IMG/VR virus record: IMGVR_UViG_3300033144_002610 | Coordinates: 1 to 42,957 of that record | Source: a virus | Strand: one strand, 5' to 3' | DNA: 42,957 nt | In this document: positions 1,666 to 42,957 of the stretch, piece by piece | Layout of the letters: the number at the start of each line of letters is the position of its first letter | How positions within the stretch are numbered: position 1 is the stretch's first letter | Notes under the pieces: model-generated | Databases searched by the model: none | What the model was told of the DNA's origin: nothing | The model's input: only the letters and a program-made list of their open reading frames with translations | Program-made: the position numbers and the translations under genes

Positions 1666-1796
1666 TAATTAAACGAAATGAGCAGTGGCTGTGGGTCCTG
1701 GCCATGGCGATAGGCGTAATTGCGGTGGGCCTGGTGCTAGGCCTGGCCGGTGGCCCGGTCAGCCCTGATGAGATGGGTCCCAACTTTTTAAGATAG
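1662..1796 (+). CDS. 44-residue single-helix membrane peptide
   Basis: The gene starts in an ATGA overlap with the terminase stop. It encodes a short basic N-terminus (IIKRNEQ) followed by a hydrophobic Ala/Gly/Val/Leu helix at about residues 9-29 and a short polar tail. One membrane-spanning helix is the only recognisable feature; the function is unknown. The last base of its TAG stop is also the first base of the tRNA acceptor stem at 1796, so this gene and the tRNA are packed without a gap. It is too short to be assigned to a family by eye. Confidence 0.5.
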   Translation: MIIKRNEQWLWVLAMAIGVIAVGLVLGLAGGPVSPDEMGPNFLR

Positions 1797-1872
1797 CTCG
1801 CGTGGCTCGAATGGTCAGGCGTCCGGTTCTGGCAACCGGTATATGCGGGTTCGATTCCCGCCGCGGGCTCCA
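1796..1872 (+). tRNA. Phage tRNA with non-canonical anticodon loop (UGG by geometry)
   Basis: A cloverleaf can be drawn. The acceptor stem GCTCGCG (1796-1802) pairs with CGCGGGC (1862-1868), followed by discriminator T and an encoded CCA (1870-1872). The T arm is GCGGG-TTCGATT-CCCGC (1845-1861), with a perfect stem. The anticodon stem CCGGT (1823-1827) pairs with ACCGG (1835-1839), and the variable region has 5 nucleotides. The 7-base loop TCTGGCA puts TGG (1830-1832) in the anticodon position, which would read proline codons. However, position 33 is C instead of the near-universal U and position 37 is C. The first acceptor pairs (G1-C72, C2-G71) and U73 look glycine-like rather than proline-like. 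The D stem is short, about 3 pairs. The gene is clearly tRNA-derived; its identity is uncertain. Confidence 0.75.
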
Positions 1873-2596: not shown

Positions 2597-4878
2597 TGGC
2601 TGATCAACACAGACCCGACGACAACACCGAGTATCAACTGGGGGCCGACCAGACCTCCGAGCCCATCTCAGGCCAACAGCCTGCCTACGAACGCACCGCC
2701 CTGGATCTACCACCGGGTGAGAACCCACCAGCTCGACAAGCAGGCGCCACTGGCACCGACAGTCTTCAGGAGGATGAGGACGTCAGGATGTTCAGCGGGC
2801 CTAACAGCGACGCCTGGCTGCTCCAACGAGCTTCAGAGATGTACGGCGCCAGCTCAGACTATCTGGATGCCAACATAACGAATCAGTGGGAGCGGAACCT
2901 CCACCACTTCAACAACGAACACGCGCCAGGATCACCCTTCTCTAACACCAAGCGAAACATTAAAAGATCAAGGATTTTCCGTCCGAAGACTCGTGCCATG
3001 GTGAAAAAGTCTGAGCGGGGCCTGGCCGTGGCCGCCTTCTCCACCCAGGACATGCTGGTCGTCAAAGCACAGGACCCGCGCGATGAGATGCAGGTCATCT
3101 CCGCGCAGATCAACCAGCGCATCCTGCAGTACCGGCTCGACCACACCATCCCCTGGTTCCAGACGGCCATTGGCCAGTACCAGGACACCAAGGTCTACGG
3201 CATCTGTATCTCGCATGCCTACTGGAAGTACCAGGAGGACACCGACGTCCGACCAGCCTTCGACGGCGACGGCAAGATGATGATGACCGACGACGGCGAG
3301 GGCAACCAGGTACCCGGAGGCTATGAGCATTACACGGTCAGGCACGATAAGCCCTGCATCGACGACATAGCCCCAGAGAATTTCCGCTTCGATCCCATGT
3401 GTGACTGGCGAGACCCGGTCAACACCTCTCCCTTCCTGATCTACCTCATGCCGATCTATCTCGGCGAGGCTGAAGAGCGGATGGAGATGAAGGATCCGAA
3501 GACAAAGCAACCCGTGTGGCGCAGACACAGCCGCGGGGCTTTACTCGGAACACGCGGCCAGGAGTACGACAGGACCCGCCAGGCGCGGGAAGGCCGGGAG
3601 CGGATCGACCCGGCAGATGAGCAGCACAGCAACTCGTTCACCACCTTGTGGGCGCACATGAACATCGTCAAGGTCAACGGCACTGACATGGTCTTCTGGA
3701 CCATGGGCACCGAGCTGCTGCTGACCGACGCCGTTCCGCTGGAGGAGCTGTACCCACATCTGCGACCAGGCGAGCGACCATTCCAGGTAGGGTTCTCATC
3801 CATTGAGGCCCACAGGAATTACCCCGCCGGTGACGTCGAACAGTCGGCAGGCCTGCAGGAAGAGATCAACAACGTAGCCAACCAGCGACTCGACAACGTC
3901 AAGCTGGTGCTCAACAAGCGGTACCACGTACGCCGGGGAAGTCAGACCGACCTGGACGCCCTGGTACGCAACACGCCCGGCGGCGGTGTCATGATGAATG
4001 ACCCCAAAGAGGACGTGGTGGTGGTGGACACACCTGACGTGACCAACTCCTCCTACATCGAGCACGACCGTCTGGCCGTGGAGATGGACGAGCTGGTGGG
4101 TAACTTCTCCCAGGGCAGCGTCCAGTCCAACAAGAATTTGAACGAGACCGCCGGTGGCATGGGGCAGATGTCCCAGGACGCCAACTCCGTCGGTGACTAC
4201 TCGATCCAGGTATTCATGACCACCTGGATGGGGCCGGTCCTCAATCAGCTTTTGCGCCTGGTGCAGCACTACGAGACGGACGAGGTGGTGCTGTCCCTGG
4301 CTGCATCCCAGTCCGATCTGTGGAAACGGTTCGGCACTGACGTGGTAACCAACAAACTGCTGACCCAGAACCTGACCGCCGCTGTTGACGTTGGCATGGG
4401 CAACACCGACCCAGTGCGTCGAGTGGACCGGCTGGTCTACGGCGTCACTCAGTCGCTGCAGATCCCCGGCCAGGCCGAGCGCGTGAAGGGTGGCAAGATC
4501 ACCGACGAGATATTTGGTGCGCTCGGTTACCGCGACGGCAGCCGGTTCTTCATGGACGACGAAGAGTTCAAGACCTACATTGAAGAGAACCCACCGCAGC
4601 CCGAGCCAGACATTGCGATCAAGCAGGCCGAGGTCGATATGCGTACCAAAGAAAATGACATGCGCAACGTGCGCGAGACGGATCGGCTGGAGATGGACAG
4701 GGAGCTGGGTTACGCCAAGCTCGCGCTCGAAGAGGGTCTGCGACTGAAGGACCTCTACCAGAAGCTGGACATCGAGACGATGCGTGACAAGACCACCCGC
4801 GAGGGCAAAGCCCTGGACGGCCAGATCCGCACCAGACAAACGAATTTACAGGCCGTTACTGCGGCCGGAGGATCTTAG
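2596..4878 (+). CDS. Portal protein (P22-like head-to-tail connector)
   Basis: The portal forms the dodecameric ring at one capsid vertex through which DNA enters and leaves, and is the docking site for the terminase. At 760 residues it is close in size to P22 gp1. Recognisable stretches include an N-terminal disordered acidic region (about 1-70), a conserved IDDIAPENFRFDP segment near 255-265, the central GFSSIEAHRNYPAGDVEQ region, and the helical TAGGMGQMSQDAN segment leading into the crown. The C-terminal about 90 residues are a charged coiled coil. It is placed directly after the terminase region and before the scaffold and coat genes. Translation probably restarts through the TAATG overlap with the preceding gene. 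Confidence 0.93.
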   Translation: MADQHRPDDNTEYQLGADQTSEPISGQQPAYERTALDLPPGENPPARQAGATGTDSLQEDEDVRMFSGPNSDAWLLQRASEMYGASSDYLDANITNQWERNLHHFNNEHAPGSPFSNTKRNIKRSRIFRPKTRAMVKKSERGLAVAAFSTQDMLVVKAQDPRDEMQVISAQINQRILQYRLDHTIPWFQTAIGQYQDTKVYGICISHAYWKYQEDTDVRPAFDGDGKMMMTDDGEGNQVPGGYEHYTVRHDKPCIDDIAPENFRFDPMCDWRDPVNTSPFLIYLMPIYLGEAEERMEMKDPKTKQPVWRRHSRGALLGTRGQEYDRTRQAREGRERIDPADEQHSNSFTTLWAHMNIVKVNGTDMVFWTMGTELLLTDAVPLEELYPHLRPGERPFQVGFSSIEAHRNYPAGDVEQSAGLQEEINNVANQRLDNVKLVLNKRYHVRRGSQTDLDALVRNTPGGGVMMNDPKEDVVVVDTPDVTNSSYIEHDRLAVEMDELVGNFSQGSVQSNKNLNETAGGMGQMSQDANSVGDYSIQVFMTTWMGPVLNQLLRLVQHYETDEVVLSLAASQSDLWKRFGTDVVTNKLLTQNLTAAVDVGMGNTDPVRRVDRLVYGVTQSLQIPGQAERVKGGKITDEIFGALGYRDGSRFFMDDEEFKTYIEENPPQPEPDIAIKQAEVDMRTKENDMRNVRETDRLEMDRELGYAKLALEEGLRLKDLYQKLDIETMRDKTTREGKALDGQIRTRQTNLQAVTAAGGS

Positions 4879-21608: not shown

Positions 21609-24600
21609 GTGGCGGAGCTTGACCTACTCGCCGGTATTGAAGAGGACCCGATGTCGGATCTGTCCGACGCGGACTTCTTCGACAGCCTATCGCTCGACGA
21701 CCAGAGCCAAATGCCGAGCGCCGACCAAAATGTGCTTGAGCCCGAAGATGACATAGCGTTCTTCGATAGTTTATCGGAGACCGAGTTTGGTTCTGCCGCG
21801 ACTGCACCTGAGCAGAGCCCCCTCTCCGACGACACCCGATGGGCCTGGGGACCGAGTGGTCCCTATCTCAAAAAGCTAAGAGAGGACGATCCTACGTGGG
21901 GTGATGTGACGGCGGGCCATGTGGCCGGTCAGGTAGGATCCGGGCTCGGCACCGCAGGAGCTTCACTCCCTCGCGGCCTGGCGATGACACTGTACGGTCC
22001 CGATCAGGACCTGCTGCAGATATTCAACAACATCGAGCGCCATGATAAAACTGAGTACGGCAAGACCCTGCCTGACATCAAGTTCTGGGACAACCATGCG
22101 ATAGATAAGGAGTCCCCTTTCGAGCTGTACGACGCCTGGCAGGTACGCGAGTACCGATCTGCTGGACCGGAGGAGCGCAAGGCTAAGCGCGCCGGTAAGG
22201 TCCGCGCCATTGAGGAAGCAACCAAGTCTGACATATACCAGTGGGGTAACTCGTTAGAGGAGTGGGCTCGGAAGCAGTCCAGCATTAACGAGACCTTGGC
22301 GGGCGCAGAAGGACTTCTTGGGTGGGCCGCTAACGGTCTCCCTAACGGGCTCGGTACGTTCTTCGGGATGGCTGTCCCGGCATTGCTGACCAGGGGCGCA
22401 GCCACCAAGCTGGGCGCAGGCCCAGGGATGGTCACCGCAGTCACCACAGCCTCCGGTGCCTTGACCGGTAGCGTCATGAACGAGATCGCTGTGTTCGAGG
22501 AGATGCTGGCCAACGGAGCGTCCTACGAGCAGTCATTCAACGCGGGCGACATAGCGGGCGTAGCAGGCACCTCGGAAGTGGTGCCGCTGGCTGCGTTCCT
22601 GAGTAAGGTCAACAGAGCGTCAGGCGGATATCTCTCTGCTGCGTTCAAACGGATGCTGATGCAGGGTGGCGAAGAGGGCTTCCAGGAGTTCGGTCAGGAG
22701 GTGATGAACGAGGTCGCCAAGCACACCTTCTACGATCAGGACAAGGGTGTCTTCGAGGTTTTGGGCCAGGCCGGTGAAGGCGCCGGTACCGGGTTCACAA
22801 TCGGTATGTTGGTGGAGGGGTTCGCCTCGCTCATGCCAGGCCGTCGTCGCGCATTCCGTAAGCTGCTGAAAGAGAAGTCCAAGATCCAGGAGCAGGCCGA
22901 CAAGCTTCAGGAGATGGAGAACGACCTGCGTCGCGAGGCAGAAGAGCAAGGATTCGACGGGTTAGAGACAGAGCTGTACGTTAACGAGCACCTGCCCGAC
23001 CCCTCCACTGATTTTGATCGGGACCTGGGTCTTGAGATAGAAGAAGAGATGCAGGGCCTGTCCGATCAGCAGCGCGTGGACGCTGAGATGGAGGCCGCCT
23101 TTGAAGAGCGCGAGGCTGCATCCGCCAAGCAGTTAGCTGCGGACATGCTCGACGCCACTGAGCAGCGCGAGAAGCAGAGAAGCGATGAGGCTGCCGGTAA
23201 GATTCAAGACCGACTGCGCGGTGAGCTGATCGAGGAAGGTGTCGAGGCCAAGCAGGGTAAGCAACCGATCAACCCTGAGATGGCCCAGAAGCTCCTGGAC
23301 GCCGGTGTCACCCCCGAGTACATACTCCAGTGGCATGAGCAGGAGCAGGAAGCTCTGCAGGCTGAGATGCAGGCTGAAGCCACACCCGCGGCCGATGTAG
23401 CAGAGGTCGAACGAAGGCGCAAACAGTCAGAGGAAAAGATAGAAGAGCCAGCTAGGCTCCTGAAGGATAAACGTGAAAAACCAGACGCCGTTTCGTCAAC
23501 AGACCCGCAGCGAGAGACTGACTTCGTGGTCTCCCCTGAAGGAGATGTTGAGACGAGTGATGCAATCCTGGCCCGCGGAGGCGAAGCAGAAAGAGGGCCA
23601 TCACCTACGGTCGAGCTTCCACTTGAAACACCCCGGTCAGCAAGCGCCGAAGAAAACGCAGAGCAGAGAGAACTCGGCACTGCCGTCGGTGAAGCAGTTG
23701 CGGAGATACCCACCGAGCCAAGTGCGGAGCGCACCGCGGCCCTGGCAGACGAAGCAGCGACGTCACCAACCAACGACCTCGCGCCACCAACAGAAGCACA
23801 GATCGAGGCGGACAGAGCCAAGAAGGGGCACCTCGAACCGAAGGACGTAGGTATTCCTGGGATACGGATCTCAATAGAGAACCCGGCGTCGGACACCTCC
23901 CGCGGGGGAGAGACCCACTACGGTGATATCCGAGGCACTATCGGGAACGACGGCGATCGAGTAGACGCCCAGGTCAACAAAGACATCGACCCTGAAGCGG
24001 ACACCGACGTGTACGTCATCGATCAGGTGGACCAGGACGGGAACTTCGACGAGCACAAAGCCATGATCGGGTTCAACACCCCTATGGCTGCTAGAAGGGC
24101 CTACGCCAGTGGGTACCCGAAAGGTTGGAAGATCGGCAAGATCACCAAGATGTCCAACAGCGAGTTCCTCGACTGGACACGTAGTGCAGAGCGGACAACT
24201 CGACCGGCGAACCCGAACACACCGGTAGCGACTGTAGCCCCTGGGACAACCAAACGGTTAGCCAAGGCCAAGGCTGAACCCAAGGCCGAGCCCGCAACTG
24301 AGCGGATGACGCCCCTGGAGGCGCGCAAGAAACTCAACGCCATGGCCTGGCGAACGTCCGGGCAGCCGCTCATTCGAGGAGCCTGGGAACCCGGTGTGGC
24401 TGAGGACATCGCTGCCATTGCCAAGGAGCAGGGCATCGACCCGGAAGAGGTTGGTGGCTGGTACGACCCGAAGACAGACAAGGCCCACGTCATCGTGGCA
24501 CCGGGCGAGAGCATGGATGAGGTCATCGTTCGGTCTCTCCACGAGCAGGTCGGTCACAAGGGGCTCCATGCGCTCTACCCGGATAAAGTGGAGCGGGAGA

Positions 24601-25037
24601 AGTTCCTCGCCGATGTGTTCACCCGTGCGGACCAGGAAGGGCTTCGACAGACCGCCCAGGAGTACAGCTGGCTAGACCCGACCAAGACAGAAGACCAGTT
24701 TATGATCGCGGAGGAGTACGCCGCCAAGGTAGCTCAACGCACCGAGGGTGGCGAGCAGGCCGGGGTACTACAGAGGATCATCGCTTCGGTCAGAGCCGCT
24801 CTGCGCAAGATGGGGTTCAAGCAATCTCAGTTTACTGACAACGACATACAGCGTATTTTGCGACAAGGAGCTGGCCGACTGCAACGTAGGCCAATGGACC
24901 GGACCTTGATCGACAGTGAAGTTGAAGTGGCCGGTACCGGTGAGGTCGTGACAATCCAGGAGCCCGCGCACATCGCGCTCAGACAGACAGAGAAACGCAT
25001 AAGCGTTGTCCAGTCACTGAGGGACTGCATTGGTTAG
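21609..25037 (+). CDS. Large polyvalent virion protein: pyrophosphatase-like and HExxGH metallopeptidase domains
   Basis: A 1142-residue protein. The N-terminus is acidic with two FFDSLS copies (about residues 22 and 51). Residues about 230-420 contain Gly/Ala-rich hydrophobic helices likely to insert in membranes, and about 420-620 is coiled coil. Residues about 738-865 match the inorganic-pyrophosphatase-like domain of polyvalent proteins: KKGHLEP, ISIENPASD, HYGDIRGTIGNDGDRVDAQV, then VYVIDQVDQDGNFDEHKAM. Residues about 900-1090 look like the polyvalent metallopeptidase: HEQVGH at 978-983 is a zinc-binding HExxGH, with EEYAAK further on. Start GTG 21609. It is presumably packaged and delivered with the DNA; substrates are unknown. 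Confidence 0.8.
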   Translation: MAELDLLAGIEEDPMSDLSDADFFDSLSLDDQSQMPSADQNVLEPEDDIAFFDSLSETEFGSAATAPEQSPLSDDTRWAWGPSGPYLKKLREDDPTWGDVTAGHVAGQVGSGLGTAGASLPRGLAMTLYGPDQDLLQIFNNIERHDKTEYGKTLPDIKFWDNHAIDKESPFELYDAWQVREYRSAGPEERKAKRAGKVRAIEEATKSDIYQWGNSLEEWARKQSSINETLAGAEGLLGWAANGLPNGLGTFFGMAVPALLTRGAATKLGAGPGMVTAVTTASGALTGSVMNEIAVFEEMLANGASYEQSFNAGDIAGVAGTSEVVPLAAFLSKVNRASGGYLSAAFKRMLMQGGEEGFQEFGQEVMNEVAKHTFYDQDKGVFEVLGQAGEGAGTGFTIGMLVEGFASLMPGRRRAFRKLLKEKSKIQEQADKLQEMENDLRREAEEQGFDGLETELYVNEHLPDPSTDFDRDLGLEIEEEMQGLSDQQRVDAEMEAAFEEREAASAKQLAADMLDATEQREKQRSDEAAGKIQDRLRGELIEEGVEAKQGKQPINPEMAQKLLDAGVTPEYILQWHEQEQEALQAEMQAEATPAADVAEVERRRKQSEEKIEEPARLLKDKREKPDAVSSTDPQRETDFVVSPEGDVETSDAILARGGEAERGPSPTVELPLETPRSASAEENAEQRELGTAVGEAVAEIPTEPSAERTAALADEAATSPTNDLAPPTEAQIEADRAKKGHLEPKDVGIPGIRISIENPASDTSRGGETHYGDIRGTIGNDGDRVDAQVNKDIDPEADTDVYVIDQVDQDGNFDEHKAMIGFNTPMAARRAYASGYPKGWKIGKITKMSNSEFLDWTRSAERTTRPANPNTPVATVAPGTTKRLAKAKAEPKAEPATERMTPLEARKKLNAMAWRTSGQPLIRGAWEPGVAEDIAAIAKEQGIDPEEVGGWYDPKTDKAHVIVAPGESMDEVIVRSLHEQVGHKGLHALYPDKVEREKFLADVFTRADQEGLRQTAQEYSWLDPTKTEDQFMIAEEYAAKVAQRTEGGEQAGVLQRIIASVRAALRKMGFKQSQFTDNDIQRILRQGAGRLQRRPMDRTLIDSEVEVAGTGEVVTIQEPAHIALRQTEKRISVVQSLRDCIG

Positions 25038-32876: not shown

Positions 32877-35800
32877 GTGCCGACACTCACGACGTGCATC
32901 AAGAAGGCAGGCAAGGCTCTCAGCGGCGGCGACGCTGCCAACATCCTGGAGATCCAGAAGGACTATGTCGCTGATGGTATGACGCCCACCGCGGCGTCGA
33001 TCAAGGCAGTGGATGAGTACCTCGGGACCCTCCGGGATGAGCGCATCGACATCATTGATCGTGCGAAGAAAGCTGGGGCAGACACTGCCGCCATAGACGG
33101 CGCTCGGCTCATCACCCGGCGCAAGTCCTCAGGCGAGCCTCCACGAGTTAAGGGTGGTAAGAGCAAGGGGCGGTACATTGGATCCCCCGGCGCCAACATG
33201 AACACAAAAGAGAAGCTGAACAAGCTACGGGAGCGGGTGGAGTCCTTAGCCCGTGAGGGTGCCGACTCCAGGTACTGGTATGAGCAGAGCTCGGATGTGA
33301 TCCTGCTTGCCGTGGGTGGTGACCGGGAGGCTGCCTCTCAGGTGGCGGGCATCCTGGCGCTCTACTCACCGGCCACCGGCGTCAAGGTCAACGTCACCAA
33401 CGCCATGAAGGCCTGGTCTCAGTTCCAGCGGGACGGCGTGGTCAAGATGGCTGGCCGGTTCGGATCCATGGACGACAAAGCGCAGACGTGGATGAAGGAC
33501 GGTGTTCTTGAGGGCGGTGAGAAGGTCCACAACTTCTACAACAACCTGATGCGCAACATCTACAACGACCCCAGCTACGGTAAGAACGAGCAGGGAGTCA
33601 CCGCGGACATATGGATGGCTCGCGCCTTCGGATACCACATCGAGGCACCCGGCCCGGCTCAGTATGCGTTCATCGAGAGCGAGACCAAGAGGCTGATAAG
33701 TGAGGTGGAGTTCTTCTCTACCTGGGAGCCGCAGCAGGTGCAGGCCGCGATCTGGGTGGCCGCTAAGGCCAGGATCGAGAAGGTCCGCAAAGTGCAGAAG
33801 GAGAAGGCCCGGAAGAAGGGTTGGATCACCGGCCCGGAAAGCAACGAGAAGATCGTCGAGCCGGTCAAGTACCGACGGGCTCTGTACAACGCGGCCATGA
33901 AAGAGGCGATGGTCCAGGAGGAGTTCACCAAGGCAGGGTTCTCATTCGCTGAAGGGATCATGAAAGATCACCTCGCACAGCTGTCCTGGGAGGCCAAACC
34001 CTCTACGACACTGACCAACGTGATGCCTGAGATCCACACGGCGCCGATAGAGCAGCGTATAGATCACCAGCTGGGTGTTAGCCGGGCACTGACCAACGAG
34101 AACGGGACGGACCTGCTCGCCCGGCACATGGGGTTCCTGACCGTGGGAGCCCTCGACGGCCCGGCCGCCTGGGAGATGAAGATCAGCCACGGCCAGCAGA
34201 ACCTGATCGTTGTGCCACCCATGCATAAGCGGGCCACTGCGGGACCTAAGAACGCCAAGGGTGAAGGGACGGAGCTGTTCGTGGTCGATCCAGACGCCAA
34301 GGCTATGGTGAACGCCTACGCGGACATTATGGGTCTGCTACTGCAGCAGGACGCTGTGGCCTGGCACCGGCCGTTCTTCGGTGCCGCCCAGTACAAGTCG
34401 AACGGGATTCACTTTGAACTTGAAGGACCTTTGACGCACGACGAAGCAAAATCGTTGTATAATAAGATGGCAGAGCTGGCGAAGGCCGCCGGGCTGTCTG
34501 AAGAGGATGCCAAAGGGTTCGCCCCCATCCACACTGAGAACGGATTCCGGGTGCTCAACTTCAGCCACCTGTCTGATGGTGCGGCTATAGAGCACGTACC
34601 GTTCCACAAGATGGTGAAGGCAGCCGTAGCCTCTGAACTGGCTCATCGGAACGACGAAGCACGGCCACTGGTGTTCGTCTCTGACGGCGAGCTACGATCA
34701 AACAACTGGAAGGAGAATCCACATGGTCAAGATTTTAGAAACAGAATTGTTAACGCCGGATTCGGGGATACCCTTGGGTGGGCTGAAAGTGTACTCGCCC
34801 CGAGGATACGTGAAGCCCACCGAGTCTCCGCCGAGCAAAACGGCTGGACCCTCCCCGACACCGGAAAAGACGGACGTGCCCGCTTCGCCCTCAAAAGGCC
34901 GGGAGGACGCAACCTTCCCCAGGTCACACCAGGACGAGATGGAGGAGTCAATGCGCCACCAGTCAGAGATGACGGACGAGTAGAGCTAACCCACTACTCT
35001 CGGAGGGGCAACCTCTCCGAGCTAGACCCGGCGTTCTACGGCACAGGCCTCGCCGGGGACGAGCGCGCCCGCAAACAAGCCCACCCTGAGCAGTGGGTGG
35101 ACCGCACTTACTACGGTCTGGCAGTCGGCCAGATCGGCGGGTACACCAAGGAGCACATGCTGGGTGACCGCATCTACACCACCTCCCTGGCACCGGCGGA
35201 CCTCTACGACTTCAGGAAGGACCCGGACGGGCTTCGACTTACCGTCAGGAATCAGTCATTTAACGAGTCCCTCAACACCTCCATCTACGAGAAGAATATC
35301 CAGGCGGCCGGATACAAAGGCTACTGGGTCAACCACCCCAACCTGAACATGGTCGCGGCCGTCTACGAGGCGCTGCCGGTAGAGACTCAACAGCAGGTTG
35401 AGCCGTCCGATGACCCCACGATCAGGTTCAGCATCAACCGTGAGAAGCTCAACAGTATCAACGCGGATCCAACCAGCGGTCAGGCCATCATCGACAAGCT
35501 CGGCATAACGATTGAAGACCAGATCAAGAACCCCAAACCGCAACGCACCGTCGTCGAGAAACTTAAGATCGGCGCCACCCGCGTCGCTGACAAAACCAAA
35601 TCCAGAACGGGGCTGCTCGCCAGCTCACCGATGATGGCCCTGCCCGACTTCGTGCGTAACATGAAGACTCCGCAGCAGTACATCGACCAGGTGCTTCACA
35701 TGGATGGCTTCGAGTCTGAACTGTCAGAGGCCTACGCTAAACAGATGGACCCCTGGCTGGAGCTTCGTGGGGAGAACCGTGCCCAGGCCCAGGAGATGGA

Positions 35801-38396
35801 GGACCTGATGGGGTTCACCACCATCTGGGAGATGGACCCCTCCAAGGCATACGTTGGCTCCCTCTCCGACAAACAAGTCCACCGCCTTGACCAGCTCCAG
35901 GCCGACCAGCGTGAGGGGCGCATGACAGCTCCAAAGGCGGAGCAGCTAAACAGGCTGCTGGGGCTCAGAAAGAACGAGGCCCTGCGTAAGAAACGATGGG
36001 CCGTGGTCACCGAGTCCTGGGCTGGACTGGAAGAGCCAGCGCGGAAGATCTACGAGTCCATCCGCGACATCAACGACGTTAAGTACAAGCAGCTCCGCGA
36101 GGCCGTCGAGGCGCGCGTCAAGGAGCTGCTCCCTGAAGGTAAGACCAGGAAGATCGCGCTCGACGGCATCCGGGAGATGTACGAGTCCGGCAAGGTCAAA
36201 GGACCCTACTTCCCCATCTCCCGCTTCGGTGAGTTCTGGGGCGTGGTTAAGGAGAAGGTCGGGGTCGATGAGTGGGACACGCTCACCTTCTCCAAGTTCG
36301 AGAACCGCTCGGACATGGAGGACTGGGTTGCTGATATGGAGAAGGAGTTCCCCAACAGAGACAGGTTCGACGTTAAGGGCGACAGAGACTCTGGTGGCAT
36401 GGGCGACGCGGCTACAGTTAACCCCCGGTTCACCGCGGAAGTGATCGACAAGGTCCGTGGCGGCAAGAAGGGCACCCCCGAGCGGGAAGCCTTGGCTGAT
36501 GAGATATGGCAGATGTATCTGCGGTCCCTACCGGAGCAGTCAGCACGTAAGCACGGCATGCACCGTAAGGGCATCGCTGGATTCTCTAACGACGCGCTGA
36601 AGTCATTCGCGCACCACTCATTCCATACGTCAAAGCAGATATCCAAGGTAACCTGGGGCCATCGTTTGGATGCGACCCTGAGCGAGATGGAGACGGAGGC
36701 CCGCTTCAACGAGGATAACTACGCGGGTCCGCTCTACGACGAGTTCCTTGCGCGGCACAAGCACATCATGAACCCCAACGTGAGCCCGCTGTCTAGTAAG
36801 TTCACCTCCGCCGGTGCTCACATGTGGTTGGGGCTACTCAACATTGGGTCGGCCGGGGTCAACCTGACACAGAACCCGCTCTTCGGGGTGGCCCGCCTCA
36901 GCGCAGACCATGCGATCTTAGGCGCCGACGAGGACACTGAGCTGGGTGTTATACGCACCATGGCCAAGGCATCCAAGGACGTCATGCGTGGGTTCGATCA
37001 TGTGATCAGGGAGCTGTCCGCAGAAGAGATTGAGGACATGACCGCCGCCGAGCAGGCCGCCCACATCGCAGAGGGGGTCGCCTTTAAGCTTCTAGCCAGG
37101 CGCGGGCTCTTCGAGAAGACCAGGGCCTATGACCTGACCAACATGGCCGAGCAAGGTGAGGACTACGTCAGTGGATGGCGTACGGCTGGTGAGGTGTCCA
37201 TGAAGCTGTTCCACATCACGGAGCAGTTCAACAGACACAGTGCTGCGCTGGCCGCCTTCCGTCTGGCCAGGGACCGGGGCATGTCTACCGCAGACGCCAC
37301 GTCCTACGCTGAGAAGGCGACCTACGACATCCACTTCAACTACTCCAGCAAGATGCGCCCCCGGATCGCCCAGGGCAACGTCCAGCGGGTAGCTTTCCTG
37401 TTCCGCAACTACTCGATCAACGCCCAGGCCAGGATCTGGCGGGACGCGGTGGACAGCCTCGACTCCCTTGGCTCAACGCAGACGGCGGAGACTAAGAAGC
37501 TGGCCCGTAACCGGCTCGGCAAGACCATGATCGCGACGCTACTGATGGCTGGCATAAAAGGGATACCGACCGTGTGGGGCGCCATATCTTTGGTGGCGTT
37601 CCTGATGGCCGACGATGACGAATACCCCGACGTTCAGGCCACCGTGCGTGAGGTCCTAGAGGAGACCTTCGGCAGGAGAGGCACTGACGTCATCATGCAC
37701 GGACCACTCGACGCCTTCACCGGCGCACACATATCATCCCGCGTGTCCCTGTCGGACCTGTGGGTGAGAGCGCCCAACCAGCGTGATGCCATGGTCCCGA
37801 TGAGTGGTGCCTGGGCGGCCTACTACGCCGCTGAGATGACCGGTCCCTGGGGCAGCTACGCCTCCGATGCGTTCTGGGCGATTCAGCAGTGGCAGGAGGG
37901 CGATCGGCAGCGGGCCTTCGAGACAGTCATGCCTCGGACCATAGCCAACATCGCTAAGGCAGTCCGCTACGCCACCGAGGGGATAGAGACCGTCGGCGGC
38001 CAGGAGGTTATGACCAAGGAAGAGCTGAGCGCGTTCGACGCCCTGAGGCAAGGCATTGGTTACTCCCCCTCGAAGGTAGGCATCCAGTGGGAGATCAACT
38101 CCCAGATCAAATTCCAACAGGCCTCGCGGACTGCTCGGGAGCGCACGTTGCGCCGTCGGCTGGCGTCTGCCTTGGACTCCGGCGATAAGGATAGGATCGC
38201 CGCGGTGGACGAGGATATCAAAGCCTTCAGGTTGAAGAACCCTGAAAGCGCGTTGAACCGCGGCTCGGCAAGGAAGTCATACGGCCGCGGTAAGAAGTCC
38301 GGCGCTCAGAACTACCAACGCGGTGTGAAGATGACACCCAAAGAGCGTTACTACTGGAAGAATCGATACAGGTTAGAAGAGGAGACAACCGAATGA
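32877..38396 (+). CDS. Giant polyvalent virion protein: ADP-ribosyltransferase-like and PLxRFG domains
   Basis: A 1839-residue protein, start GTG 32877 with GGAG 7 bases upstream. Residues about 100-310 form a helical domain of the type found at the N-terminus of polyvalent proteins (GGDREAASQVAGILALYSP, then QGVTADIWMARAFGYH and WEPQQVQAAIWVA). Residues about 702-865 match the polyvalent ADP-ribosyltransferase-like domain: VELTHYSRRGNLSELDPAFY, RTYYGLAVGQIGGY, then YKGYWVNHPN. At about 1109-1121, GPYFPISRFGEFW is a variant of the PLxRFG signature. A hydrophobic segment at about 1550-1580 (ATLLMAGIKGIPTVWGAISL) may span a membrane. It is probably ejected into the host with DNA, where NAD-dependent modification of a host target is the plausible role. 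Confidence 0.82.
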   Translation: MPTLTTCIKKAGKALSGGDAANILEIQKDYVADGMTPTAASIKAVDEYLGTLRDERIDIIDRAKKAGADTAAIDGARLITRRKSSGEPPRVKGGKSKGRYIGSPGANMNTKEKLNKLRERVESLAREGADSRYWYEQSSDVILLAVGGDREAASQVAGILALYSPATGVKVNVTNAMKAWSQFQRDGVVKMAGRFGSMDDKAQTWMKDGVLEGGEKVHNFYNNLMRNIYNDPSYGKNEQGVTADIWMARAFGYHIEAPGPAQYAFIESETKRLISEVEFFSTWEPQQVQAAIWVAAKARIEKVRKVQKEKARKKGWITGPESNEKIVEPVKYRRALYNAAMKEAMVQEEFTKAGFSFAEGIMKDHLAQLSWEAKPSTTLTNVMPEIHTAPIEQRIDHQLGVSRALTNENGTDLLARHMGFLTVGALDGPAAWEMKISHGQQNLIVVPPMHKRATAGPKNAKGEGTELFVVDPDAKAMVNAYADIMGLLLQQDAVAWHRPFFGAAQYKSNGIHFELEGPLTHDEAKSLYNKMAELAKAAGLSEEDAKGFAPIHTENGFRVLNFSHLSDGAAIEHVPFHKMVKAAVASELAHRNDEARPLVFVSDGELRSNNWKENPHGQDFRNRIVNAGFGDTLGWAESVLAPRIREAHRVSAEQNGWTLPDTGKDGRARFALKRPGGRNLPQVTPGRDGGVNAPPVRDDGRVELTHYSRRGNLSELDPAFYGTGLAGDERARKQAHPEQWVDRTYYGLAVGQIGGYTKEHMLGDRIYTTSLAPADLYDFRKDPDGLRLTVRNQSFNESLNTSIYEKNIQAAGYKGYWVNHPNLNMVAAVYEALPVETQQQVEPSDDPTIRFSINREKLNSINADPTSGQAIIDKLGITIEDQIKNPKPQRTVVEKLKIGATRVADKTKSRTGLLASSPMMALPDFVRNMKTPQQYIDQVLHMDGFESELSEAYAKQMDPWLELRGENRAQAQEMEDLMGFTTIWEMDPSKAYVGSLSDKQVHRLDQLQADQREGRMTAPKAEQLNRLLGLRKNEALRKKRWAVVTESWAGLEEPARKIYESIRDINDVKYKQLREAVEARVKELLPEGKTRKIALDGIREMYESGKVKGPYFPISRFGEFWGVVKEKVGVDEWDTLTFSKFENRSDMEDWVADMEKEFPNRDRFDVKGDRDSGGMGDAATVNPRFTAEVIDKVRGGKKGTPEREALADEIWQMYLRSLPEQSARKHGMHRKGIAGFSNDALKSFAHHSFHTSKQISKVTWGHRLDATLSEMETEARFNEDNYAGPLYDEFLARHKHIMNPNVSPLSSKFTSAGAHMWLGLLNIGSAGVNLTQNPLFGVARLSADHAILGADEDTELGVIRTMAKASKDVMRGFDHVIRELSAEEIEDMTAAEQAAHIAEGVAFKLLARRGLFEKTRAYDLTNMAEQGEDYVSGWRTAGEVSMKLFHITEQFNRHSAALAAFRLARDRGMSTADATSYAEKATYDIHFNYSSKMRPRIAQGNVQRVAFLFRNYSINAQARIWRDAVDSLDSLGSTQTAETKKLARNRLGKTMIATLLMAGIKGIPTVWGAISLVAFLMADDDEYPDVQATVREVLEETFGRRGTDVIMHGPLDAFTGAHISSRVSLSDLWVRAPNQRDAMVPMSGAWAAYYAAEMTGPWGSYASDAFWAIQQWQEGDRQRAFETVMPRTIANIAKAVRYATEGIETVGGQEVMTKEELSAFDALRQGIGYSPSKVGIQWEINSQIKFQQASRTARERTLRRRLASALDSGDKDRIAAVDEDIKAFRLKNPESALNRGSARKSYGRGKKSGAQNYQRGVKMTPKERYYWKNRYRLEEETTE
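34723..34983 (+). other. Candidate nested ORF inside the giant polyvalent gene
   Basis: An 86-residue +1-frame ORF starts at ATG 34723, with AAGGAG ending 8 bases upstream, and ends at TAG 34983, just before the ADP-ribosyltransferase-like domain. The product is Pro/Ser/Glu/Lys-rich (LGGLKVYSPRGYVKPTESPP) with balanced codons, not the Arg-rich string usual for shadow frames. The host frame here encodes a linker, which can tolerate overlap. It may be a real overlapping gene or chance. Confidence 0.3.
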
Positions 38397-42303: not shown

Positions 42304-42675
42304 TTAGCGTACTATAGCAAGGCCGAGCCGTTTCATCGCCTGTATTAACGAGTTTTCTACTCGGGCCTTGGACTTCAAACTGTCCTGGGTGTTGTCGTCG
42401 GCGGTGCCGGGGACGACGATGTGGTGGTTGATCACGTTCTTACCGACGCGCCGGTGGCCGCCTGCGAGCCTGGCGATCGCCTGGTTGTACAGCTCCAGGC
42501 TGTAGTTGAGCCCGAACCAGGCCATCAGTTCTCCACCGTCTTGAAGGTTTAGCCCGTGACCGGCACCGGCAGGGTGCAACAGCATCACCGGTATCCGCCC
42601 GGCGTTCCAGTCGTCCTCTTCCTTCTCGGTGTCGAGCTTGCGCCAGGGGATCTTGGCCTTGGTCAGGATAGAAGA
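42304..42675 (-). CDS. SNF2-type helicase, C-terminal part (shifted frame)
   Basis: This minus-strand frame carries the second RecA-like domain of a phage SNF2/DEAD-like helicase: KAKIPWRKLDTEKEEDDW, then PVMLLHPAGAGHGLNLQDGG (motif V region), WFGLNYSLELYNQAIARLAG (motif VI region with the arginine finger), and a C-terminal helix ending at TAA 42304. The preceding part of the domain lies in a different frame. The frames must be joined between about 42661 and 42675, a +1 change. A few residues also seem to be missing there compared with relatives. Confidence 0.7.
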   Translation of the reverse strand, partial: SSILTKAKIPWRKLDTEKEEDDWNAGRIPVMLLHPAGAGHGLNLQDGGELMAWFGLNYSLELYNQAIARLAGGHRRVGKNVINHHIVVPGTADDNTQDSLKSKARVENSLIQAMKRLGLAIVR

Positions 42676-42957
42676 TCATCACCGGCTTGCCCTCACAGCC
42701 CTCTATAAGCTCCATAACAGCGCGCAGCTTCGAGTCGTGTACGTGGTGGACATTGCGCTCATCGTCGTACACAGCGCCGTTGGCCATCTGCAGGAGCTTG
42801 TTCTGTAGCACCCCCGCGTTGGCGGCTGAGATGACCTTGCCGCTGGACAGCTCCGACACGTAGTGCTTGGCCATCCGGTTATAGATTTTCCACTCGGCCG
42901 GGGTCATGTCCACCTGGATCCAGTTGTCCATCACCGGCGGCAGGTCCAGGTAGTCCT
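42440..42957 (-). CDS. SNF2-type helicase, upstream part (5' end outside window)
   Basis: This frame is open to the right edge of the window and continues beyond it, so the start is not seen. It encodes DYLDLPPV, then WIQVDMTPAEWKIYNRMAKH and NKLLQMANGAVY, then KPVMIFY, the typical lead into the second helicase domain of SNF2-like phage proteins. After about 42661 the frame becomes an Arg-rich string ending at 42440, while the true sequence continues in the neighbouring frame. It would remodel or unwind DNA with ATP. The ATPase motifs lie outside the window. Confidence 0.65.
   Translation of the reverse strand, partial: DYLDLPPVMDNWIQVDMTPAEWKIYNRMAKHYVSELSSGKVISAANAGVLQNKLLQMANGAVYDDERNVHHVHDSKLRAVMELIEGCEGKPVMIFYPDQGQDPLAQARHREGRGRLERRADTGDAVAPCRCRSRAKPSRRWRTDGLVRAQLQPGAVQPGDRQARRRPPARR

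What the first reader, a model, noticed from the sequence alone, without database searches (positions are those of the whole stretch)
32877..38396. Virion-borne polyvalent giant with ADP-ribosyltransferase-like and PLxRFG domains
The 1839-residue protein is encoded directly before the lysis cassette. It combines an N-terminal helical domain, an ART-like domain (HYSRRGNLSELDP ... GYKGYWVNHPN, about 702-865), a variant PLxRFG signature (PISRFG, about 1113-1118) and a late hydrophobic segment. Family knowledge: polyvalent proteins with these domains are thought to be packaged and injected. Inference: this phage delivers an NAD-using modifier at infection onset. The PI instead of PL signature and the domain order may be new.
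Basis: partly seen in the sequence, partly recalled or inferred. Interest (0 to 1): 0.65.

Follow-up and report, generated by a model that had tools for sequence, protein, structure and literature searches.

The report
Giant phage protein with payload modules
This phage gene encodes a giant protein of a known kind, thought to be packed in the virus particle and injected into the host; its front half is an unrecognised, widespread phage module that looks like a DNA-repair-type enzyme, joined to a divergent ADP-ribosyltransferase-like domain that may have lost a catalytic residue.

Summary
In detail: one intact 1839-aa ORF (32877-38396) directly before lysis genes, with an ART-like stretch (~700-840), PISRFG at 1113-1118 and a weak hydrophobic segment. 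The C-terminal half (LPD39, PLxRFG region) is the known C-terminal module of giant phage 'DarB-like/PLxRFG' proteins; the PI variant is a conservative change.

(1) Residues 95-660 form a conserved ~565-aa module (DUF7178 plus ~360 aa) with 167 related contig stretches, fused in giants or standing alone. In 14 T7-like contigs the free version lies in the internal-virion (ejection) gene block, before gp16. Its model (pLDDT 90) resembles AGOG 8-oxoguanine DNA glycosylases, with Lys216 and Asp244 invariant in 47/47 sequences at HhH-GPD catalytic positions. Sequence alone does not prove this. (2) The ART-like domain matches no curated family, but its model finds AcrIF11 (an anti-CRISPR ART) first in the PDB. 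His706 is invariant; the window copy lacks the acidic residue most relatives carry, so NAD transfer is doubtful.

Verdict: new variant of a known kind (polyvalent protein). Delivery is supported by gene context only; enzyme activities are predictions.

The parts
32877..38396 (+). Polyvalent protein ORF, 1839 aa
   Evidence: families
33159..34856 (+). N-module, residues 95-660: DUF7178 plus about 360 aa, conserved as one unit in viral contigs
33264..33770 (+). DUF7178 part (residues 130-298), predicted HhH-GPD/AGOG-like fold
33522..33524 (+). Lys216, invariant, candidate catalytic lysine
   Evidence: 47/47; helix-hairpin-helix position
33606..33608 (+). Asp244, invariant, candidate catalytic aspartate
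   Evidence: 47/47; start of helix
34974..35396 (+). ART-like domain, residues 700-840; His706 at 34992-34994
35310..35342 (+). GYKGYWVNHPN, the loop where ART relatives carry the acidic residue; none here
35577..38393 (+). C-terminal module shared with giant PLxRFG phage proteins (residues 901-1839)
35592..36212 (+). LPD39 (residues 906-1112)
36213..36230 (+). PISRFG, variant of PLxRFG
37524..37616 (+). Weak hydrophobic segment (about residues 1550-1580)

Best explanation
A phage polyvalent protein, made late, packed into the particle and ejected with the genome. The C-terminal half (LPD39 plus PLxRFG region) is the part shared by such giants and probably serves packaging, ejection or membrane passage (inferred). 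The N-terminal half is payload. Residues 95-660 form a DNA-acting module whose first part has an AGOG/EndoIII-like HhH-GPD fold with a Lys216/Asp244 pair, predicted to excise bases or nick at abasic sites in host DNA or in the incoming genome. Residues 700-840 form an ART-fold domain of the AcrIF11/ART-PolyVal kind, which either modifies a host or defence protein with altered chemistry or only binds NAD or a target. Shown: ORF, domain borders, families, conservation, gene context. Predicted by model: the two folds. Inferred: ejection, catalysis, targets.
For: LPD39 and DarB-like C-terminus; giants in the same pre-lysis position in other phages; free N-module proteins between tail-tubular/gp15-position genes and gp16 in 14 T7-like contigs; N-module followed by the same ART domain in 13 other loci, about five lineages; AF2 models with pLDDT 90 and 82; Foldseek to AGOG and AcrIF11; K216 and D244 invariant in 47/47 and in the diverged solo protein of phage Caelum.
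Against: No proteomics. Foldseek E-values are weak (0.68 for AGOG, 0.01 for AcrIF11). Profile-profile comparisons do not exceed shuffled controls. No HhH-GPD or ART-PolyVal Pfam hit. The window's ART copy lacks the acidic residue.
Confidence: 0.5

Rival explanations
1. It is mainly a structural ejection protein: the N-module is a non-catalytic DNA-binding or channel part of the ejectosome and the ART-like domain is a degenerate passenger.
For: The free N-module sits in the internal-virion gene block; the ART acid is lost; structure and sequence links to enzymes are weak.
Against: About 20 polar or aromatic residues including K216 and D244 are identical in 47/47, a pattern typical of active sites; a solo DUF7178 with the same residues lies in an early-type gene cluster beside an OCR-like antirestriction gene.
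Confidence: 0.3
2. One reading: the protein's key function is an NAD-using ART that modifies host proteins at infection onset.
For: ART fold predicted, AcrIF11 first in the PDB; His706 invariant in 30/30; ARTs are the commonest protein-modifying domain in polyvalent proteins (PMC5512222).
Against: No acid at the loop position or at G-Y-x-G in this copy, although 26 of 30 rows have one; no ART-PolyVal profile match.
Confidence: 0.15
3. It is not packaged but acts inside the producing cell late in infection, for example with lysis.
For: No proteomic proof of packaging; the gene is next to the lysis genes.
Against: Ejection-block position of the free N-module; P1 DarB is a virion head component (PMC5512222).
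Confidence: 0.08

Closest known systems
Giant PLxRFG / 'DarB-like antirestriction' proteins of podophages (Klebsiella SopranoGao gp6, Ochrobactrum POI1126 gp30)
   Same: C-terminal ~900 residues align end to end, LPD39 then PLxRFG; position before lysis genes
   Different: Those are ~4,400-4,800 aa with methylase/helicase-type parts per their annotation; here 1839 aa with N-module and a different ART, and InPase on a separate protein
AcrIF11 (PDB 6kyf), anti-CRISPR ADP-ribosyltransferase
   Same: Top PDB fold match of the ART-like domain (prob 0.98); H-x-S at strand 1
   Different: No detectable sequence-profile link; catalytic D115 has no acidic counterpart here; AcrIF11 is a small free protein
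ART-PolyVal (PF18760)
   Same: Same type of carrier protein; ART-PolyVal-like proteins among weaker viral fold matches; one relative carries both domains (L049)
   Different: Pfam profile does not match the window domain or its 13 homologues
AGOG 8-oxoguanine DNA glycosylase (PDB 1xqp, 7ou3), HhH-GPD superfamily
   Same: Only sensible PDB fold matches of the N-module; K-x3-F and D-x4-R patterns around catalytic K140 and D172
   Different: Weak E-value, no profile-level similarity, different spacing, and an extra ~360-aa partner region
T7 internal virion (ejection) proteins gp14-gp15-gp16
   Same: Free N-module proteins are encoded in this block before gp16
   Different: The window phage is not T7-like in gene order; its portal is nearest to Vibrio phage 1.232.O

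Membership tests
Phage polyvalent protein (Iyer et al. 2017) | Large multidomain protein with LPD-type domains and unrelated predicted activities | tested here: met
   LPD39, DUF7178 and an ART-like fold in one 1839-aa chain
Phage polyvalent protein (Iyer et al. 2017) | Encoded with late structural genes | tested here: met
   terminase, portal, capsid upstream, lysis downstream
Phage polyvalent protein (Iyer et al. 2017) | Packaged in the virion and delivered | not testable with these tools
   only context; no proteomics
PLxRFG giant protein (C-terminal module) | LPD39 followed by PLxRFG and ~700 residues | tested here: met
   PI instead of PL
ADP-ribosyltransferase fold | ART fold | tested here: met
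   AF2 plus Foldseek, several ARTs on top; prediction only
ADP-ribosyltransferase, active enzyme | Catalytic triad with His (strand 1), aromatic (strand 2) and Asp/Glu | tested here: not met
   His706 present, aromatic plausible, acid absent by alignment; alignment-based
ART-PolyVal (PF18760) | Match to the curated profile | tested here: not met
HhH-GPD DNA glycosylase superfamily | Fold with helix-hairpin-helix | tested here: inconclusive
   AGOG hits prob 0.82 and 0.33, E 0.68; secondary structure fits
HhH-GPD DNA glycosylase superfamily | Catalytic Lys after the hairpin and Asp after the GPD loop | tested here: inconclusive
   K216 and D244 invariant 47/47 at matching places; 3D distance not measured
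HhH-GPD DNA glycosylase superfamily | Sequence profile match | tested here: not met
   No HhH-GPD or AGOG Pfam hit in 47 members; hhalign score within shuffles

The most novel reading that the evidence does not exclude
DUF7178 and its ~360-aa partner form an unrecognised virion-ejected DNA glycosylase/lyase-like enzyme, used both as a free protein in T7-type ejection blocks and as a fused domain in giant polyvalent proteins, often paired with an uncatalogued ART domain: base-excision chemistry delivered with the phage genome.
Probability: 0.4. Interest if true: 0.75.

Novelty: new variant of a known kind. Interest (0 to 1): 0.55.

Why it matters
Polyvalent proteins are a large, mostly untested store of phage effectors. 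The 2017 survey paper does not contain the word glycosylase. If the N-module is a HhH-GPD enzyme carried in the particle, phages deliver base-excision chemistry at entry, against host DNA, against base-modification defences, or to repair their own genome. Its free form in T7-like ejection blocks is a protein of ordinary size on which this can be tested directly, and an ART family without a Pfam entry adds a second domain to screen.

Tried and rejected
Pfam, NCBIfam and PHROGs for the ART-like domain: no family. PDB sequence searches with ART and N-module profiles: nothing relevant; sulfatase hits match one short LYDLxxDP stretch and are rejected as local similarity. Profile-profile ART against AcrIF11 and N-module against AGOG: not above shuffled columns, so no sequence-level homology is claimed (83-84 were failed runs of the same test). 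Full-protein search of viral contigs: no match. Genome-contig scan with the ART domain: none confirmed. Plasmids: none. N-module against phage isolates: no full-length relative. PADLOC: none. 'PI instead of PL may be new': rejected as a conservative change. 'Domain order may be new': kept only as 'not seen in this sample'. Reference sequences for 6kyf, 8dwq and 1xqp were recalled from memory and then verified identical to the PDB entries.

Full report
What is there. The window is a virus record with terminase, portal and capsid genes on the left and a lysis-type cassette on the right. The finding is one intact ORF, 32877-38396, 1839 aa, with GGAG and an in-frame stop directly before its GTG. 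Pfam finds DUF7178 at 130-298 and LPD39 at 906-1112, both above their curated cut-offs. PHROGs finds the C-terminal part of giant 'DarB-like antirestriction' proteins at 1091-1820. The described motifs are at the stated places.

C-terminal half. Residues 901-1839 align with the last ~900 residues of giant proteins in Klebsiella phage SopranoGao, Ochrobactrum phage POI1126, Serratia phage Parlo, Erwinia phage Pavtok, Pseudomonas phage Skulduggery and others. In SopranoGao, Skulduggery, Pavtok and Pseudomonas phage BR228a the giant is followed by endolysin-, lysozyme-, holin- or lysis-annotated genes, as here. The motif reads PLxRFG in all 12 other homologues that cover it and PISRFG here. This half is a known module; its role in packaging, ejection or membrane passage is inferred from its constancy, not shown.

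ART-like domain. No Pfam or NCBIfam model matches this domain or its 13 homologues, and no PHROG matches residues 690-880. Homologues were found in 19 viral contigs and in a 4012-aa protein of Nostoc phage Nsp-JY18, mostly inside proteins of about 1,000-3,600 aa. The AF2 model (14 sequences) has mean pLDDT 82. Its best PDB match is 6kyf (prob 0.98, TM 0.44/0.50, E 0.01), which is AcrIF11, an anti-CRISPR ADP-ribosyltransferase (PMC12421852); EcPltA, MbcT and the diphtheria-toxin catalytic domain are among the top 11. Confident matches among predicted viral structures are largely polyvalent proteins, and ART-PolyVal-like proteins follow at weaker E-values. His706, Gly812 and Tyr777 are invariant in 30 sequences. 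In AcrIF11 the catalytic acid is D115 (D146/E147 in a homologue), just after a G-[YF]-x-x-V-x-M segment. Most relatives have Asp or Glu in this loop or at G-[YF]-[DE]-G; the window has GYKGYWVNHPN with none, and only three other rows lack an acid there (L013, L014, L002). NAD transfer by this copy is therefore doubtful, although binding or altered chemistry is not excluded. The placement is alignment-based: sequence profiles do not align with AcrIF11 above shuffled controls.

N-terminal module. A search with the DUF7178 region found proteins whose similarity ran far beyond it, over residues 95-660. A search with that alignment found 167 related stretches, of which the best 80 were kept; most cover the whole module at 30-39% identity. 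It occurs inside giants up to 3,394 aa and as free proteins of about 730-950 aa. In 47 diverse members W134, Y135, S164, N172, K216, F220, T242, D244, W246, R249, P285, Q289, W293, K297, E372, D412 and Q491 are identical in all. Before any structure search I noted that the pattern resembles a HhH-GPD glycosylase (note). The AF2 model (pLDDT 90, pTM 0.90) puts K216 as second residue of the helix after a six-residue hairpin and D244 immediately before the next helix, the arrangement of the catalytic Lys and Asp in that superfamily (family knowledge). The PDB search gave only two hits with a sensible fold match, both AGOG 8-oxoguanine glycosylases (1xqp prob 0.82, 7ou3 prob 0.33), whose K140 and D172 are essential (PMC9638937). 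Against this, E-values are weak, no sequence-level link is detectable, and I could not measure the K-D distance. I put the fold at somewhat better than even.

Context for delivery. In 14 T7-like contigs with the free N-module protein, it is followed by a gp16-type internal virion protein and, where the contig reaches it, the tail fibre; upstream, where the contig reaches that far, lie tail-tubular proteins, in some a gp14-like internal virion protein, and usually a gene in the gp15 position. Products of this block are ejected into the cell in T7 (family knowledge). The N-module is followed by the ART domain within about 75 residues in 13 other loci, about five lineages. A solo DUF7178 protein in Streptomyces phage Caelum keeps the K, F, D, Q and W and lies in a cluster with an OCR-like antirestriction protein. 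The window's fusion of N-module, ART and LPD39-PLxRFG was not seen in the other loci examined (positive control).

Mechanism. Most likely the protein is packed and ejected; the C-terminal half handles packaging or passage, and the N-terminal half acts at once on DNA and, perhaps, on a protein target. The DNA step would be base excision or nicking through K216/D244. Substrate, direction (host or own DNA) and timing are unknown.

Relation to known systems. It belongs to the polyvalent proteins of Iyer et al. (PMC5512222) by domain content and gene position; virion presence could not be tested. It is not a member of ART-PolyVal by profile, and membership of HhH-GPD is inconclusive. Overall a new variant of a known kind. 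The interest lies in the N-module rather than in the ART or the PI motif.

Limits. Many IMG/VR contigs are near-duplicates, so counts of loci overstate lineages. Both folds are predictions. I found no experiment on this protein.

Noticed in passing
window 21609-25037: A second polyvalent-type protein (1142 aa) with an InPase domain at 730-857 (Pfam E 9e-28) and a zincin-like HEQVGH motif at residue 978 (24540-24557). The phage seems to spread over two proteins what relatives carry in one giant.
   Followed up: partly
window 42304-42955, - strand: Two overlapping ORFs in different frames look like one SNF2-type helicase C-terminus broken by a frameshift at the contig edge, natural or sequencing error (my reading).
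   Followed up: no
window 1796-1872: tRNA-Pro (TGG) between the terminase and portal genes.
   Followed up: no
L127 2657-3274 (Streptomyces phage Caelum gp80): Solo DUF7178 protein near an OCR-like antirestriction gene and an acetyltransferase gene, suggesting a takeover or counter-defence role.
   Followed up: partly
L049 giant protein, residues 2251-2373 and 2826-3008: One protein carries both the uncatalogued ART-like domain and a canonical ART-PolyVal domain, plus a MuF_C-like stretch below its curated cut-off.
   Followed up: no
L036 and L088 giant proteins: N-module combined with LPD38 instead of LPD39.
   Followed up: no
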